This document shows positions 45,340 through 51,910 of a stretch of 64,000 bases of DNA, one piece after another; position 1 is the first letter of the stretch; the number at the start of each line of letters is the position of its first letter. Origin of the DNA: Methylomonas sp. EFPC3. GTDB taxonomy: Bacteria; Pseudomonadota; Gammaproteobacteria; Methylococcales; Methylomonadaceae. The stretch lies in the NCBI RefSeq assembly GCF_029643245.1, contig NZ_CP116398.1, positions 2,232,001 through 2,296,000 of the forward strand, in the 5' to 3' direction. A program made the translations under genes and the position numbers. The notes below the pieces were generated by a model. It had not been told where the DNA came from and ran no database searches. It was given only the letters and a program-made list of their open reading frames with translations.

Positions 45340-46830
45340 CTATGGATGGCACTCCGGCAATAGCGAACTGCGCCAGTATTGGCCTTCTTTCTCGAACAAA
45401 CGCCGGCTTTCTTCCGGCCCCCAGGAACCGGCCGGATAGGTAGGGATATAGTCGCGTTCGATTGCCCAGTTTTGCAGGATCGGATCGACGATACGCCAGG
45501 CATACTCTACTTCGTCGAAGCGCAGGAACAACGAGCGATCGCCTTTCATGACGTCCAGCAACAGGTCCTCGTAAGCGTCGACCCGGCGTTCGTCGGGTTG
45601 GCGGAAACTGGCGTCCAGGCTGGTGGTGCGGGTGCGCATCTCCAGCCCGGCTTCTTTGACGGTCATTTCCATCCGGATACATTCGTCGGGCTGAATCCCC
45701 ATCAATACCCAGTTCGGCGTCATGCATTGCACCTGGGTGTCGCGGAAAAATTGCAAGGGCGGATGGCGGAAACAAATCGAAATCGACGACTGGCCCTTGG
45801 CCATACGCTTGCCGGTGCGCAGATAAAACGGCACGCCGCGCCAGCGCCAGTTGTCGATCAGCAATTTCACAGCGGCGTAGGTCTCGGTCGTGCTTTCGGC
45901 CGGGATATTGGGTTCTTCCAGATAGGCCGGGACTTTTTGGCCGGCGATGTTGCCCTTGGCATATTGGCCGCGGAAGGCGTGGGCATGCACGGCCGACTTC
46001 GGAATCGGCCGGATCGATTTCAGGACTTTGACTTTCTCGTCGCGTAGCGATTCGGCGTCCATCGATACCGGCGGCTCCATCGCCACCAAGGTCAATAATT
46101 GCAGCAAATGGCTTTGCACCATATCGCGCAACGCGCCGGCGCTGTCGTAATAGTCGCCGCGACTGCCGATGCCCAGTTCTTCGGCATGGGTAATCTGCAC
46201 GTGATCGATGTAATTGCGGTTCCACAACGGCTCCAGCATCACGTTGGCGAAACGGAACACCAGCACGTTCTGCACCATGCCCTTGCCCAGATAGTGGTCG
46301 ATCCGGTAAATCTGGTCCTCGCTCAGATAGCGGTTCAGGCGTTTTTGCAGCGCTTGCGCGCTCTCCAGATCGTAACCGAACGGCTTTTCGATCACGACCC
46401 GGCGCCAACCGTACTCTTCGTTGAGCAGGCCGACGTTACTCAGCGATTCGATCACGTTGCCGAAATCGCTGGGGCCGATCGCCAAATAAAACGCGATATT
46501 GCGGGAAAATTGCGGGCGGCCGCCCAGGGTTTCCGCCAGCGCTTGGTAGCATTCGGTCTGGTCCAGGTCGCCGCGGTGGTAATCCAGGCGTTCGGCGAAA
46601 CGGGCGAATTCGGCTTCGTCCAGCGGCGTTTTCGACTGCTCCTGCAACAAGGTTTTCACTTCGGCCAGCCAGGTCGCCCGATCCCACGGCCGCCGGCCGA
46701 CGGCCAGGATGCGGGTGTCGTCCGGCAGTTTTTTTTCCAGTTGCAAATGATAAAACCCGGGCATCAATTTCAGCCGGGCGAGATTGCCGGTGGCGCCGAA
46801 AATCACGTAGGTACAGGGATCGGTATTCAT
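45340..46830 (-). CDS. zwf: Glucose-6-phosphate 1-dehydrogenase
   Basis: First step of the oxidative pentose phosphate and Entner-Doudoroff routes, giving NADPH. The 496-residue protein has the N-terminal dinucleotide fold ([18 protein letters not shown]), the active-site signature [21 protein letters not shown] (about 175-195) and the C-terminal Zwf domain. GGAG eight bases before the ATG supports the start. It stands alone; pgl, edd and gnd are not adjacent. Confidence 0.97.
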
Positions 46831-47109: not shown

Positions 47110-48453
47110 TCAGGTGTTGGCCAGCATCGCCAACGCCGTCAGACTGGGCAGGAAGAAATAAGCCCCGCCGCGGGTGGTGACGAACTGCTGGAAGCCGCAG
47201 ACCCGGCGCCGTAACGGTTGGTCCTGAATGGTGAATTTGCGGTCGGTTTCCACCGCGCTGCCGATCAACGGATCGTCTTCGTCGTACAAGCCGGCAAATT
47301 TGACGTTGTTGATCCAGGTATGTTGTACGAATTCGAACTGGCGTTCGATATTGGCGTTCAGGCAGATGAACAGCAGGCCACGCTCGTCTTTGCTGGTGTC
47401 CTGGCTCGGATCTTCCAAAAAGCTGCCGTAACTGCGGCCGCGGCGCAAGATGCGGTGGCGGTTGGCCACTTTCAGCGATTCGGCCTCGTTTTCGCCCAAA
47501 CCCACCCCGCGCGGATTGGCGCGGCGAATGTGCGAGCCGAACGGGCAGCCGGTGCCGTCCTTGTCGTTAGCGAAGGTAAAGCTGTTGTCGATTTTATTGG
47601 AATCGGTCTTTTCCCCGGGCTCGACCACCGCACCGCTTTTCCAGCGGCCGACGAACTTGGCGGCCAGATATTCCGGATCGATGCCCTGCCGTGCCGCCTC
47701 GTCGTTGATAAACTGCCAGAATTCGCCGACGTTCTGTTTCAATTGGCGGAACACCAGGTAGGTACCGTTGGCGCCGAATTGTTCGCTGACCGGCATCTGG
47801 GTCTTCTTGCCGTCGTACTGGTTCGGGTAACCCAATAGAAACTCCCCGGTCGCGATTTCGCCGCTGCCGGACACGGTTGGAAAGCCGTCGACCAGCGGAT
47901 CGGAAATACCGTCGGCAAAGCCGAAATGCTCCCGCACGAAGCCGTGCTGGTTTTGCACCTTGGCGCCGGCATCCAGACGGTCGATTTTACTCAAGCCGGC
48001 CGCTTTTAAGCCTTTTTCGAAACTGCTGCAACTGGCGGCGTGAATCGCATCATCCTTGGAAAACAGAATCAGCAGAATATCGACTTCCTTATTGCCGTTG
48101 CCCCAACTCCATTGCGCCGGGTCGTTGGGGCCGCGGTCGCCGAGCAAGGCCGAACGGTGTTCGGAATTCATCCCTTCCCGGAACGACAGTTCGAAACTGT
48201 AGCGTTTGGCCTCGTCGGCCTCCAGTTTGCAGTAGCCGGGATAGCTGATCGCCAAGTTCAGACGGTTTTCGGTGGTGTCGTCCGGCTTTTCGGCGCCGTG
48301 GCTGATCTGGCCGCTGGCGACCAGATTTTTCAACCAGGCTTTGGTTTTGGCGGCATCTTCGATCCGGAGCAGATAATAGCTGGCATTGGCCATGTATTTG
48401 TTGTATCCGCTGAATACGATGCCTTGTACTTCGTCTAGTTTTATCGTTGTCAT
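47110..48453 (-). CDS. DyP-type heme peroxidase
   Basis: A 447-residue dye-decolorising peroxidase. It has the GxxDG motif in HFGFADGISDP (about 180; the distal Asp), the proximal heme His in GCPFGSHIRRANPRG (about 305) and a distal Arg in RHRILRRGRSYG. It lacks a signal peptide, so it acts in the cytoplasm unless carried by a partner. AAGGA eight bases before the ATG. It is last of three minus-strand genes, 11 bp after an unknown membrane protein and after a P450 fusion; the substrate is unknown. Confidence 0.92.
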   Translation of the reverse strand: MTTIKLDEVQGIVFSGYNKYMANASYYLLRIEDAAKTKAWLKNLVASGQISHGAEKPDDTTENRLNLAISYPGYCKLEADEAKRYSFELSFREGMNSEHRSALLGDRGPNDPAQWSWGNGNKEVDILLILFSKDDAIHAASCSSFEKGLKAAGLSKIDRLDAGAKVQNQHGFVREHFGFADGISDPLVDGFPTVSGSGEIATGEFLLGYPNQYDGKKTQMPVSEQFGANGTYLVFRQLKQNVGEFWQFINDEAARQGIDPEYLAAKFVGRWKSGAVVEPGEKTDSNKIDNSFTFANDKDGTGCPFGSHIRRANPRGVGLGENEAESLKVANRHRILRRGRSYGSFLEDPSQDTSKDERGLLFICLNANIERQFEFVQHTWINNVKFAGLYDEDDPLIGSAVETDRKFTIQDQPLRRRVCGFQQFVTTRGGAYFFLPSLTALAMLANT

Positions 48454-48464
48454 GGTTCAGTTCC

Positions 48465-49802
48465 TTATAAGCATTTCAGCCAGGCGGCCAGATCGGCGGT
48501 GGAGAACAAACCGCCATGGATGCGGCGGTTGTTATCAATGTTTTTCACCGACAAATCGGTATAGGCGCTGTACCAGACCAATTCCGGCAACTGGCTGTTA
48601 CGGGCGAAGTTTTTGAAACGCTGTTCGTCGCGGGAACCGCCGCGCAAGGCCAACCATTGCGTATCCGGAAAACCTCTGTCCTTGGCTTGCTGGGTGTTAC
48701 TCCAGACCGCGGTCAAACCGACGCTGGCATGGTCGATGAATTCGCCCAGGTAGTTTTCCCAGCTGCCGTCGTAATTGCTCATGAACAGCAGGCGTCGGCG
48801 GCCGCCGGCATTGCCGGGCAGAATCACCCAGCGGGCGAAGTGAATGGTAACGATGCCGCTCAAATTGCCTTTGGTCGCCACCAGTTTGGCGACCAAATTG
48901 ATGCCGGCCAACACCACCTTCAACGTGTAGAACCGGAAATTACCGGGCTTGATTTCGATCACGCTGGTCAAATGGTTTTGCAACTGGCGGTCTTCGACCC
49001 GCTGAATCGCCCGCATTTGCTCGGACACCACCCAAGGTTTGTCGTCCTGTTTGTCGCGCATTTCATGCCAGCGCAGCACGACGCCGAACGCGACTGCACC
49101 CAGCACCGCCGCGGTCGCCAAAAATTCGGTAAACGGCCCGAACCAACCGAAAAAGCCGCCGACCAGGACGATGCCGACCACCGCCAACAGCGCATTGAAG
49201 ACTTTATCGCCATAGAGCGTAAAGAACGGCTGAGCCTCGATCTTGGGAATACCGCCCGGATACACCGTATTCAAATGCTGCACCACCGCGGCGTGGATTT
49301 GCGCTTCGCTTTGGCCGACCAACTGGCTGCGGTTTTCGTCGATGAATTTTTGGATATGGCCGCGGATTTCGCGCTGCCGGTAAATCGTATTGCGGTTCTG
49401 GCCGGGATGGGCGACGTAAAACGCATTGGCGCCCTGGTCGTTGGCCAGCAAGTAAGCCGCCAACTGGCCGGCATCGCTGCCGGGATAACCGGCGCAACAG
49501 CTGTAGACCTTGTTGACGAACTGCGGATTCTTCGCGATCAGTTCGTTGACGAAAGCCTTGACCTCGCCGTCGATATTGGCCTCGAACGCCAGCAAGGCCG
49601 GTGCCGGCGAACTGCCCGGCGACGGATGGTCGCCGGGTATGACGAAAAAAGTGCAGTAATGCAGATGCTCGTAGGCGGCGAAGGATATCTCCTGGCCTTT
49701 CTTGTTTTTGATATCCAGCCCGATCGGCTCCAGATAGCTTTTCAGCTCCTCCAGCTTGTCCGGCAAAATTTCCGTGATAACGGTCATCGGATTCTGTTGC
49801 AT
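48465..49802 (-). CDS. Membrane protein between P450 fusion and DyP peroxidase
   Basis: A 445-residue protein I cannot name. N-terminal part (about 1-190) looks like a ferredoxin-like/dimeric alpha-beta barrel (MTVITEILPDKLEELKSYL; LHYCTFFVIPGDH), then two adjacent membrane helices (about 205-245, VFNALLAVVGIVLVGGFFGWF...), then a second alpha-beta part (about 280-445) with HFARWVILPG, LLFMSNYDGSWENYLGEFID and GLTAVWSNT. The last motifs recall domains found beside heme peroxidases. DyP enzymes are themselves ferredoxin-like, so this may be a non-heme relative or a membrane anchor. GAGG eight bases before the ATG. Confidence 0.75.
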   Translation of the reverse strand: MQQNPMTVITEILPDKLEELKSYLEPIGLDIKNKKGQEISFAAYEHLHYCTFFVIPGDHPSPGSSPAPALLAFEANIDGEVKAFVNELIAKNPQFVNKVYSCCAGYPGSDAGQLAAYLLANDQGANAFYVAHPGQNRNTIYRQREIRGHIQKFIDENRSQLVGQSEAQIHAAVVQHLNTVYPGGIPKIEAQPFFTLYGDKVFNALLAVVGIVLVGGFFGWFGPFTEFLATAAVLGAVAFGVVLRWHEMRDKQDDKPWVVSEQMRAIQRVEDRQLQNHLTSVIEIKPGNFRFYTLKVVLAGINLVAKLVATKGNLSGIVTIHFARWVILPGNAGGRRRLLFMSNYDGSWENYLGEFIDHASVGLTAVWSNTQQAKDRGFPDTQWLALRGGSRDEQRFKNFARNSQLPELVWYSAYTDLSVKNIDNNRRIHGGLFSTADLAAWLKCL

Positions 49803-49840
49803 AGCAAAGTCCTCTTGAAATTATTATGGTCTGGTCGAAA

Positions 49841-51874
49841 TTACCGATCGAACGCCAGCACGAACTGATCGGGGAACGGACCGTCGTACAACAGGCACCC
49901 GCATTTCCTGAGATTGTTCAGTCTCAGCAAACTGCCCACTATCAACGGAATCTGGATGCGGTTGACGTACTCGCCGAAACAGCGGTGCATGCCGTCGCCG
50001 AAATGCAGGTATTTGTCCAGCGGACGGTCGTCGCGGACGCTGAACGGTTCCGGCCAGGCGCTTTCGTCGAACATCGCCGAGGCGGTGAAGGCAAACACTT
50101 CGGTTCCTTGCGGAATCTTGACGCCGCCGATTACCGCACCGTGTTTACAGTGGCGGCGCATCGCCGCAGCCATGGTATTGAAGCGGAACACGTCGAAGCA
50201 CAGATGCAACAATTTGTCCTCGTCATCGACCGCTTGCTTGGCCCGGGCCAAGACGTCCGGCTGGGCCAGCAATTGTTCGACGATCAAAGTACTGGCCATC
50301 GACGTGGTGTCCAACGCGCCGACGATCAGGCCGGAAATATTGCGGCGGATACCGTCGTCATCCAGATCGTGCTGGCCGTCCATACCCATTTTGATCAGAC
50401 GGGACAAAAAGTCTTCGCAGACCTCGCCGTTTTGCAAACGCTGCCGGCGTTCGGCAATCAGATTCAGCAGATAAGGCCCCATTTCCCGGAAGGATTGTTC
50501 GGCGGTTTGCTGAATCGCGCGGTCGTTGCTCAAGTTCAGGAACAGGTCGTGAAACAGCGAGCGCATCCAGCGCATCATCGTCACTTCGTCCGGCCCCGGC
50601 ACGCCCAGGTAATCGCTGATGAAGCGCCGTGCCGCCGGCCGCGCCAGTTGCGACACCATATCGATCCGGCCCACCGGCAGCGCGGCTTGCACCAGCTCGT
50701 CGCAGTGTTTACGGACGATACGGCGGATCAACTCGGCTTCGTTGGGCTGGATCACCCGCCGCAATGCGCCCTGCTCGCGGCTGTATTGTTCGGACCGGTC
50801 CATGCCCAGGAAAAACGGCCCGTTCAGGCGTTGCATGTTCGGCGCGTTGATTTCGGCGATGGTGAATTCGGTATCGCGCGCCAGCGTCTCGCGCACGTCG
50901 GCATCGCGGGTGACGATGCCGTATTTGCCGAGCACCAATACCGGCTTGTGTTCACGCAACCAGGCGAACAATGGCCGCTGCACCTTGGCCCCGGTCAATT
51001 GGGCGATGCCGCGCGCCAAATAGTACGAAAACAGATTCTGCGGCGTGGTGGAGGTCGGGTGGTGATCCAGCTCGGCCTGGCGTGGCGGCCGGTGTTCGCG
51101 GTACATCTTCAAAGCCAGTTCGCCGCTGCGGGTAGCGCGCAACTGTCGGCAAAACGCCTGATATTCTTCAGGCAAACTGGCGAAGGCCGGAAACTCGCCG
51201 CCGTATTGGTCCGGAAAAATCACCGGCGCCGCCAGCGCCGCCAGGGCGTAATCGGCAATTCCCGGTTTTGCACCGGCAAGATAAGCCCGGCCGTCGCTCA
51301 ACAAGGCATCGAATTCGCCGAATAGCGTCTCGATTTTGGTCCGGTTGGGTTGAACGTGTTCGCTGCCGACCGGCAGATGTTTCTGCATCGCCGCGCGGAT
51401 ATACGGATAGGCTTTTTCCAGAATGGCTTGCTGCCAGCCCGCAATGCCCCGCCGCCAGGCCGGCAGCAAAATCTGCGGGTGCGGCAGCAACATCGAATAG
51501 GCGTAATCGCGAGTCGCCAGACCCAGGGCATCCAGTTTGCTCAGTACTTCAGCGGTGGCTTGCCGCTCCGCGTTACCGGCCGGGAACAGACGCTGATCGG
51601 CCGGCAAGCGGGCGTCGACGTATCCGACGATGTCGCGCCAGCTATCCAGCGTCGCCTCGCTGCTGACGAATACCGGCATGGCCTGACCGCCGCCACCGGC
51701 CAGTCGAAACGGCAGCAAATGCAATACCGGCGCGCTGCCTTGTTCGCGGTAAGGTACGCCGCCGGCTTCCAAGACCCAGCGTACCAACTCGCAAATATGG
51801 GATGTCGGAATCGTCAGCAGGCGATTCAATTTTTTGGAACGGGCTCCGCGCCGCGTGTTTCCGGGTCTGATCAT
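49841..51874 (-). CDS. Fusion of GST-like domain and cytochrome P450
   Basis: A 677-residue protein. Residues about 20-245 look like a glutathione S-transferase fold: a thioredoxin-like part with SHICELVRWVLEAGGVPY, then an all-helical part with YLAGAKPGIADYALAAL. Residues about 270-677 form a P450: I-helix LIVGALDTTSMAST (about 515-528), meander, and heme loop FGDGMHRCFGEY with Cys632. The K-helix reads DVFR (Asp561...Arg564) where nearly all P450s have ExxR. I chose ATG at 51874 (GAGG eight bases upstream); an ATG at 51910 has no ribosome site. It starts the three-gene cluster. Such a fusion is unusual; substrate unknown. Confidence 0.85.
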   Translation of the reverse strand: MIRPGNTRRGARSKKLNRLLTIPTSHICELVRWVLEAGGVPYREQGSAPVLHLLPFRLAGGGGQAMPVFVSSEATLDSWRDIVGYVDARLPADQRLFPAGNAERQATAEVLSKLDALGLATRDYAYSMLLPHPQILLPAWRRGIAGWQQAILEKAYPYIRAAMQKHLPVGSEHVQPNRTKIETLFGEFDALLSDGRAYLAGAKPGIADYALAALAAPVIFPDQYGGEFPAFASLPEEYQAFCRQLRATRSGELALKMYREHRPPRQAELDHHPTSTTPQNLFSYYLARGIAQLTGAKVQRPLFAWLREHKPVLVLGKYGIVTRDADVRETLARDTEFTIAEINAPNMQRLNGPFFLGMDRSEQYSREQGALRRVIQPNEAELIRRIVRKHCDELVQAALPVGRIDMVSQLARPAARRFISDYLGVPGPDEVTMMRWMRSLFHDLFLNLSNDRAIQQTAEQSFREMGPYLLNLIAERRQRLQNGEVCEDFLSRLIKMGMDGQHDLDDDGIRRNISGLIVGALDTTSMASTLIVEQLLAQPDVLARAKQAVDDEDKLLHLCFDVFRFNTMAAAMRRHCKHGAVIGGVKIPQGTEVFAFTASAMFDESAWPEPFSVRDDRPLDKYLHFGDGMHRCFGEYVNRIQIPLIVGSLLRLNNLRKCGCLLYDGPFPDQFVLAFDR

Positions 51875-51910
51875 GCTTCCTACCTCGTTGTTTATAGTTA
51901 TTGTGTGCAT

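What the first reader, a model, noticed from the sequence alone, without database searches (positions are those of the whole stretch)
47110..51874. Three-gene oxidative cluster: GST-like/P450 fusion, unknown membrane protein, DyP peroxidase
Seen: three tightly spaced minus-strand genes (38 and 11 bp gaps), each with a good ribosome site. Known: P450s and DyP peroxidases are separate heme enzymes; a GST-like domain fused to a P450 is not a standard arrangement. Inference: a peroxide-driven or glutathione-linked oxidation route, perhaps for a lipid or peroxidised substrate, with the membrane protein as organiser. I know no named pathway with this trio.
Basis: partly seen in the sequence, partly recalled or inferred. 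Interest (0 to 1): 0.72.

Follow-up and report, generated by a model that had tools for sequence, protein, structure and literature searches.

The report
Conserved bacterial DyP–P450 oxidation module
Three neighbouring genes of a methane-eating bacterium belong to a widespread bacterial enzyme module in which an unknown partner protein sits beside a peroxidase and often beside a second heme enzyme, which suggests a shared job on peroxides such as oxidised lipids and offers a handle on what these peroxidases are for.

Summary
The trio is real. In Methylomonas, a GST-like/P450 fusion, a membrane protein with no Pfam match ("mid") and a DyP peroxidase form one tight minus-strand cluster. It is not a local oddity. 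Of 89 mid loci examined, 87 carry a DyP beside mid; the other two end at the contig edge. In a separate draw of 398 genomes (own genome included), 27 carry mid and all 27 have a DyP within about 1.3 kb. Seventeen loci carry P450, mid and DyP as one polypeptide, always in that order; P450s accompany 41 of 89 loci. In 11 others a protein whose nearest solved relative is coral catalase-related allene oxide synthase takes the P450's place; no locus has both. Mid is a tandem of two ferredoxin-like repeats around a membrane hairpin. The GST-like fold is supported by profile search, but glutathione use is doubtful. All 17 fused P450s lack the acid–alcohol pair for O2 activation; the window's P450 keeps it. 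My best mechanism (about 0.5) is a membrane-held, hydroperoxide-handling module, analogous to fungal dioxygenase–P450 and coral lipoxygenase–AOS fusions. Substrate, chemistry and mid's role are inferred. Nine paper searches found no description of the module.

The parts
49841..51874 (-). GST-like/P450 fusion protein, 677 aa (in-frame ATG also at 51910)
51089..51874 (-). GST-like N-terminal domain (residues 1-262)
   Evidence: GST_C_2 2.8e-5, just below cut-off; family profile, best PDB match a putative GST, E=2e-7; beta-alpha-beta then all-helical prediction
50306..50311 (-). P450 I-helix acid-alcohol pair D522-T523, kept here; absent in the fused relatives
49979..49981 (-). P450 heme-thiolate Cys632 (FGDGMHRCFG)
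   Evidence: Cys in 41 of 41 P450s aligned
48465..49802 (-). mid: tandem ferredoxin-like membrane protein, 445 aa, no Pfam/NCBIfam family over cut-off
49308..49802 (-). mid N-terminal ferredoxin-like repeat (residues 1-165)
   Evidence: hhalign N half vs C half, prob 99.9, E=7.4e-32; model pLDDT 93.7
49059..49226 (-). mid two-helix hydrophobic hairpin (residues 193-248)
   Evidence: helices 193-217 and 223-248; hydropathy
48468..48980 (-). mid C-terminal ferredoxin-like repeat (residues 275-445), the most conserved part (IHFARW...SNYDGSWE)
47110..48453 (-). DyP-type peroxidase, 447 aa; class V (former C/D) by its nearest relatives (class label recalled)
47902..47922 (-). DyP distal motif GFADGIS with D181
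   Evidence: D in 88 of 88
47530..47532 (-). DyP proximal heme ligand H308 (role by motif, recalled)
   Evidence: H in 87 of 88, one gap

Best explanation
The three genes are one version of a conserved bacterial oxidation module. Shown by sequence: the core is a DyP peroxidase plus mid, a tandem ferredoxin-like protein usually with a membrane hairpin. An accessory heme enzyme is often added, either a P450 or a catalase-related protein, and with some P450s a GST-like protein. Inferred: mid holds the enzymes together at the membrane, perhaps with its conserved repeat faces binding the partners or an amphipathic substrate. DyP makes or handles an organic, probably lipid-derived, hydroperoxide using its heme. 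The P450 or catalase-related enzyme then converts that hydroperoxide (isomerisation, dehydration to an allene oxide, or peroxygenase chemistry) without needing a redox partner. The GST-like domain binds or passes on the reactive product. This would be a bacterial analogue, of separate origin, of fungal dioxygenase-P450 fusions and coral AOS-lipoxygenase fusions.
For: Functional unit: DyP beside mid in 87 of 89 loci, the 2 misses cut by contig ends; DyP within about 1.3 kb in 27 of 27 mid genomes among 398, while DyPs of this kind (E<=1e-20) occur in 29 of the 398 (Fisher p about 7e-40, own genome included). Fusions P450-mid-DyP: 11 of the 41 P450 loci of the first set and 6 more in the second, all in that order. 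Distance matrices correlate: mid-DyP r=0.88 over 74 loci, mid-P450 0.88 over 32, DyP-P450 0.90 over 32, 0 of 2000 permutations as high. Hydroperoxide reading: in 11 of 89 loci a protein whose family profile best matches coral allene oxide synthase 1u5u (E=8.9e-11) stands in for the P450, in L071 in the same open frame as mid; 0 of 89 have both; 2 more, with no P450 in the stretch held, in the second draw. The I-helix acid-alcohol pair is absent in 17 of 17 fused P450s and 26 of 50 readable P450s. No redox-partner family is among the 25 commonest flank families shown. Membrane hairpin predicted in 81 of 87 long mids. At least 10 phylum-level labels by record title.
Against: The window's own P450 keeps D522-T523, so it could be an ordinary O2-dependent monooxygenase; the best 50 fold matches are bacterial P450s such as CalO2, CYP125, CYP134 and P450BioI. 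No lipoxygenase, desaturase or phospholipase is among the 25 commonest flanking families shown, and a lipoxygenase search of the host genome found none, though that search rang in no control either. 37 of 89 loci show neither P450 nor catalase-related gene (some are cut by contig ends), so the second heme enzyme is not essential. 9 of 14 catalase-related proteins have Asn or Gln at the aligned distal His position. 11 of 12 single-repeat mids tested and 6 of 87 long mids lack a predicted membrane helix in the tested region. Shared species history also raises the distance correlations. Two of 29 genomes with this kind of DyP show no mid. No substrate evidence exists.
Confidence: 0.5

Rival explanations
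1. Ordinary O2-dependent P450 monooxygenase fed by a housekeeping redox partner, with DyP removing peroxide leaked by uncoupled turnover and mid only anchoring the pair.
For: The window's P450 keeps D522-T523 and Cys632 and its fold matches bacterial monooxygenases; 24 of 50 readable P450s in the module keep the acid-alcohol pair.
Against: 17 of 17 fused P450s lack the pair. The P450 is replaced by a catalase-related protein in other loci. The DyP-mid core exists in 48 of 89 loci without a detected P450, so DyP cannot exist only to protect it.
Confidence: 0.2
2. A detoxification or aromatic-oxidation module (phenolic, dye-like or xenobiotic substrates) in which GST conjugates, P450 hydroxylates and DyP oxidises.
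For: DyPs oxidise dyes and some degrade lignin models (review PMC8197335, passages seen). A GST-like domain is present.
Against: Only 15 of 89 loci have the GST-like part, with a degenerate glutathione motif. No aromatic-catabolic family is among the 25 commonest flank families shown. The catalase-related swap is not explained.
Confidence: 0.12
3. A stress, signalling or defence effector: the module is switched on by cyclic-nucleotide or kinase signalling and makes an oxidised signal or damages membranes.
For: One gene family (cyclase plus TPR in L004) lies directly upstream in all 11 fused loci of the first set, and a Crp-like family lies downstream in 8 of these 11; members of the Crp-like cluster also lie 3.6-6.6 kb upstream of mid in L015, L018 and L021. 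Kinase-AAA and cyclase-AAA proteins sit next to L036 and L076.
Against: These neighbours are lineage-bound; none of them flanks the trio in the window. One weak PADLOC hit (mid, LeoBC, E=0.0056) is all that the three core proteins give.
Confidence: 0.13
4. Chance adjacency of three unrelated oxidative genes.
For: 37 of 89 mid loci have neither a P450 nor a catalase-related gene in view.
Against: Single-polypeptide fusions in 17 loci; DyP beside mid in 87 of 89 loci and near it in 27 of 27 genomes.
Confidence: 0.01

Closest known systems
Fungal dioxygenase-P450 fusions (PpoA, linoleate diol, allene oxide and epoxy alcohol synthases)
   Same: A heme oxidase/peroxidase physically joined to a P450; there the P450 partners work without redox partners on a hydroperoxide (PMC13049297, passages and section 35 seen).
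   Different: There the partner belongs to the peroxidase-cyclooxygenase superfamily; here it is a DyP plus the unrelated protein mid, with the P450 at the N-terminus. Activity here is untested.
Coral allene oxide synthase-lipoxygenase (catalase-related AOS, PDB 1u5u/3dy5)
   Same: The stand-in enzyme of 11 loci has this as its nearest solved relative (E=8.9e-11); joining of such an enzyme to a partner also recurs (L071).
   Different: No lipoxygenase seen here; distal His is kept in only 5 of 14.
DyP peroxidases with solved structures, nearest PDB 8re3/8re2, then 7anv and Anabaena Alr1585 (5c2i)
   Same: The window's DyP is one by sequence and catalytic residues.
   Different: The main text of a 2021 DyP review holds no occurrence of P450, and I found no report of a constant partner protein like mid.
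CYP152 peroxygenases and CYP74 (recalled)
   Same: Peroxide-driven P450s without the usual acid-alcohol pair, as in the fused members here.
   Different: The fused P450s read GFxPT[TN] rather than the CYP152 Arg-Pro motif (recalled); the window's P450 keeps the pair; its sequence and fold neighbours are other bacterial P450s.
EfeUOB deferrochelatase/iron uptake DyPs
   Same: DyP in an operon with transport partners.
   Different: TIGR01412 matches far below cut-off (37.3 vs 428 bits); mid gives no Pfam match to a transporter.

Membership tests
DyP-type peroxidase (TIGR01413) | Score above curated cut-off | tested here: met
   111.3 vs 100.5 bits
DyP-type peroxidase (TIGR01413) | Distal Asp in GxxDG, proximal His, distal Arg (roles recalled) | tested here: met
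   D181 88/88, H308 87/88, R337 86/88
DyP-type peroxidase (TIGR01413) | H2O2-dependent oxidation of dyes | not testable with these tools
   needs purified protein
Cytochrome P450 | Pfam p450 and heme-thiolate Cys motif | tested here: met
   E=1.8e-22; Cys632; Foldseek best 3buj, E=6e-17
Cytochrome P450 | K-helix ExxR | tested here: inconclusive
   DxxR in the window and 9 others, ExxR in 31 of 41
Peroxygenase/hydroperoxide-type P450 | I-helix acid-alcohol pair absent | tested here: not met
   D522-T523 kept in the window; absent in 26 of 50 readable module P450s, among them 17 of 17 fused
Glutathione S-transferase | GST fold and family profile | tested here: met
   Family profile hits GSTs in PDB, best E=2e-7; window protein alone just below the Pfam cut-off
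Glutathione S-transferase | Glutathione-binding residues after the cis-Pro (recalled) | tested here: inconclusive
   P67 invariant in 9 of 9 sequences, but the Glu/Asp-Ser motif is degenerate in most others
Fungal dioxygenase-P450 (LDS/AOS) fusion | Peroxidase-cyclooxygenase-type heme domain | tested here: not met
   The peroxidase is a DyP
Catalase-related AOS (stand-in gene of relatives) | Nearest solved homologue and proximal Tyr | tested here: met
   1u5u E=8.9e-11; an aligned Tyr in the C-terminal Arg-rich motif in 14 of 14 (that this is the heme ligand is inferred)
Catalase-related AOS (stand-in gene of relatives) | Distal His | tested here: inconclusive
   His in 5 of 14, Asn or Gln in 9

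The most novel reading that the evidence does not exclude
A previously undescribed bacterial counterpart of oxylipin synthases: a membrane-held complex in which a DyP acts as the dioxygenase or peroxidase and hands a lipid hydroperoxide to an interchangeable second heme enzyme (P450 or catalase-related), organised by a new tandem ferredoxin-like protein family that is the near-constant partner of this DyP group.
Probability: 0.35. Interest if true: 0.88.

Novelty: new variant of a known kind. Interest (0 to 1): 0.7.

Why it matters
[quoted passage not shown] Here one DyP group has a near-constant partner (27 of 29 genomes) and natural single-chain fusions, which makes function directly testable. 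If the hydroperoxide reading holds, bacteria independently evolved the peroxidase-plus-P450 logic of fungal and animal oxylipin synthesis, with the second heme enzyme exchanged between P450 and catalase-related types.

Tried and rejected
Chance adjacency: rejected. Mid as a diverged DyP: no support in profile comparison (prob 0.2, E=0.32). Mid in phage records: none; in viral contigs: 7 stretches matched the pattern, none encoded a relative. Mid's fold by Foldseek: only weak matches (best E=8e-3, an ABM/SchA-like protein; 3gn6, a ferredoxin-like repeat, is rank 16), so the ferredoxin-like label rests on the repeat comparison, the secondary structure and these weak matches. Viral fold library: no match at E<=0.001. 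Defence system: one weak hit for the core proteins, E=0.0056. Lipoxygenase in the host genome: none found, but no control rang, so this is not evidence of absence. Pfam Dyp_perox_N did not ring in the host genome although the DyP is there. Rfam: nothing at gathering scores between 44000 and 55200. Sigma-70 promoter scan: none found, mean 2.1 in shuffles, uninformative. Nine paper searches (listings and abstract starts seen) showed no description of the trio or of P450-DyP fusions; the library lacks most subscription journals. Passages were read in two papers only: PMC13049297 (passages and section 35) and PMC8197335 (passages). Flank survey: from the nearest neighbour on each side, 15 near-duplicate, own or similar loci, catalase-related genes and ORFs under 150 codons were left out before selection; 113 of the 123 selected were scanned (10 dropped by me: 4 GST-like ones already known and 6 opposite-strand ORFs, to stay under the size limit); only the 25 commonest of 116 families were shown. 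Flank genes were called by simple ORF rules, so some are probably not genes. Only the best 80 of 299 relatives were returned, ranked by similarity to the window's mid, so the 89-locus set leans towards close relatives and holds near-duplicates; searches are the less biased check, though they cover one phylum only, include the window's own genome, and the DyP profile was built from mid-linked DyPs. I-helix classes depend on alignment; one odd sequence (L120) may be misaligned and L106 was too short to read.
Full report
WHAT IS THERE. The window lies in a single-contig genome of 4.44 Mb. Its mid protein is 100% identical to one of Methylomonas koyamae SM2 and 73-98% identical (best segment) to those of six other Methylomonas records, so the host is very probably a Methylomonas. 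Transcription order is GST-P450, mid, DyP. Neighbours are zwf (glucose-6-phosphate dehydrogenase) downstream and divergent PhoD-like phosphatase and GDPD genes upstream.

THE PROTEINS. The DyP passes the NCBIfam DyP model. Its nearest solved relatives are 8re3/8re2 (E=1e-64, 2e-63), then 7anv and Anabaena Alr1585. Catalytic residues (roles recalled) are conserved across the family: D181 in 88 of 88, H308 in 87 of 88, R337 in 86 of 88 sequences. The P450 part has the heme-thiolate cysteine (41 of 41) and a P450 fold. Its K-helix reads DxxR where 31 of 41 have ExxR. The N-terminal 262 residues match GST models weakly alone and more clearly as a family profile (best PDB hit a putative GST, E=2e-7). 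The predicted model (mean pLDDT 88.2) shows a beta-alpha-beta start followed by helices, as GSTs have. Foldseek did not show this domain because the 50 listed hits are all P450s.

MID. No Pfam or NCBIfam family reaches its cut-off and no PDB sequence matches beyond E=0.037. Its AlphaFold model is confident (pLDDT 93.7, pTM 0.91). The N- and C-terminal parts are homologous to each other (hhalign probability 99.9, E=7.4e-32), and both carry an H-F-A-R-like strand and a DG motif. Between them lie two hydrophobic helices, residues 193-248. A hydrophobic stretch in this linker is predicted in 81 of 87 mids with a span of 300 residues or more; 3 shorter hits were set aside. In distant relatives the two repeats are separate short genes near a DyP; 11 of 12 such short ORFs tested have no predicted membrane helix. 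Mid is thus a fused, usually membrane-anchored pair of ferredoxin-like units. It is not detectably related to DyP by sequence. Fold matches in the PDB are weak.

CO-OCCURRENCE. A profile of mid found 299 relatives in the genome collection and returned the best 80. With 8 earlier loci (L004-L011) and the window's own locus (L012) this makes 89, several of them near-duplicates. DyP lies beside mid in 87; the two misses (L035, L050) end at the contig edge just after mid. P450 is present in 41 (in L051 on the opposite strand) and a GST-like part in 15, all of them P450 loci. By record titles the hosts span Pseudomonadota, Actinomycetota, Planctomycetota, Bacteroidota, Acidobacteriota, Myxococcota, Armatimonadota, Chloroflexota, Gemmatimonadota and Cyanobacteriota (many are MAGs). 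In a separate even draw of 398 genomes of the phylum, 27 have mid, 29 have a DyP of this kind at E<=1e-20, and all 27 have that DyP within about 1.3 kb of mid, mostly adjacent. One of the 27 is the window's own genome; two DyP genomes (G428, G509) show no mid. Within that draw 11 of 27 (own included) show a P450 and 2 a catalase-related gene in the stretches held (mostly 1.5 kb flanks, so lower bounds), none both.

ARCHITECTURES. P450, mid and DyP are three genes in Methylomonas and actinobacteria, mid-DyP-P450 in Bacteroidota and some others, and one polypeptide (P450-mid-DyP) in 11 loci of the first set and 6 of the second. Mid-DyP is fused without P450 in Rhizobium L007 and L067, and beside a separate P450 in L051 and L080. 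Such repeated fusion and fission of the same parts is strong evidence for a shared function. Pairwise distances of the three proteins correlate at 0.88-0.90 (10 loci dropped as near-duplicates or the window's own, and sequences of 280 residues or fewer dropped; shared species history contributes to this).

THE SWAP. In 11 loci without P450 (12 genes, L079 has two) an unannotated protein flanks mid-DyP. Pfam gives no match for the three tested; NCBIfam gives one weak catalase hit among three tested (L075, E=0.0065). Its family profile hits coral allene oxide synthase 1u5u (E=8.9e-11) and then catalases. An aligned tyrosine, inferred to be the heme ligand, is kept in 14 of 14; distal His in 5 of 14. 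In L071 it lies in the same open frame as mid. No locus of 89 has both it and a P450. P450s of allene-oxide-synthase type and catalase-related AOS act on the same class of substrate, fatty-acid hydroperoxides (PMC13049297, passages and section 35, for P450s; PMC5617202, title and abstract start, for catalase-related enzymes).

THE P450 CHEMISTRY. The I-helix acid-alcohol pair that serves O2 activation is missing in 17 of 17 fused P450s and in 26 of 50 readable module P450s (51 aligned, L106 too short to read, L120 perhaps misaligned). All Methylomonas members aligned, the window's included, keep it. So the system as a whole tolerates P450s unlikely to activate O2 in the usual way, while the window's own enzyme could still do so. 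This is the main uncertainty of the mechanism.

GST. The GST-like part is fused to the P450 in Methylomonas, in L018 and L023 and in one acidobacterium (L058, which also has a separate copy), and is a separate neighbouring gene in three actinobacteria (L027, L059, L063) and one Phenylobacterium (L080). Its occurrence in a glutathione-poor group (recalled) and the degenerate site argue against simple glutathione chemistry.

MECHANISM. My best reading is a membrane-held hydroperoxide-handling module: DyP as the first heme enzyme, P450 or catalase-related as an interchangeable second, mid as organiser. Shown: composition, conservation, fusion, swap, conserved active-site residues. Inferred: substrate, direction of flow, roles of mid and the GST-like part.

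NOVELTY. The logic resembles fungal dioxygenase-P450 and coral AOS-lipoxygenase fusions, but the peroxidase superfamily differs and mid has no named family in the libraries searched. Nine paper searches showed nothing on it; the main text of a DyP review contains no mention of P450. I file it as a new variant of a known kind, because the function is not shown.

Noticed in passing
L004:3974-5752, L005, L006, L010, L077, L078, L081, L082, L084, L087, L092: One gene family (cyclase domain plus TPR in L004) lies directly upstream of the single-chain P450-mid-DyP fusion in all 11 fused loci of the first set; a Crp-like family lies directly downstream in 8 of these 11.
   Followed up: partly
L015, L018, L021: Members of the same Crp-like cluster lie 3.6-6.6 kb upstream of mid in three gammaproteobacterial loci, in L018 directly upstream of the GST-P450 gene.
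   Followed up: no
L036:1428-5192 and L076:4221-8294: Large signalling ATPases (Ser/Thr kinase-AAA_16; cyclase-AAA_16) sit directly next to the module in two unrelated phyla.
   Followed up: no
L108, L111, L113, L116, L117: Split form of mid: two separate single-repeat genes beside DyP, possibly the ancestral state; L117 also has a P450 upstream.
   Followed up: partly
L079: Two different catalase-related genes flank one mid-DyP pair in a Methylococcaceae MAG.
   Followed up: no
L039:5861-7980: GST-like and P450 parts lie in two overlapping frames, so this locus may be a frameshifted or split version of the GST-P450 fusion.
   Followed up: no
L028:10447-11946: A second DyP on the opposite strand a few kilobases from the module in a Modestobacter MAG.
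   Followed up: no
window 45340-46830: zwf-type glucose-6-phosphate dehydrogenase begins about 280 bases downstream of the trio on the same strand.
   Followed up: no
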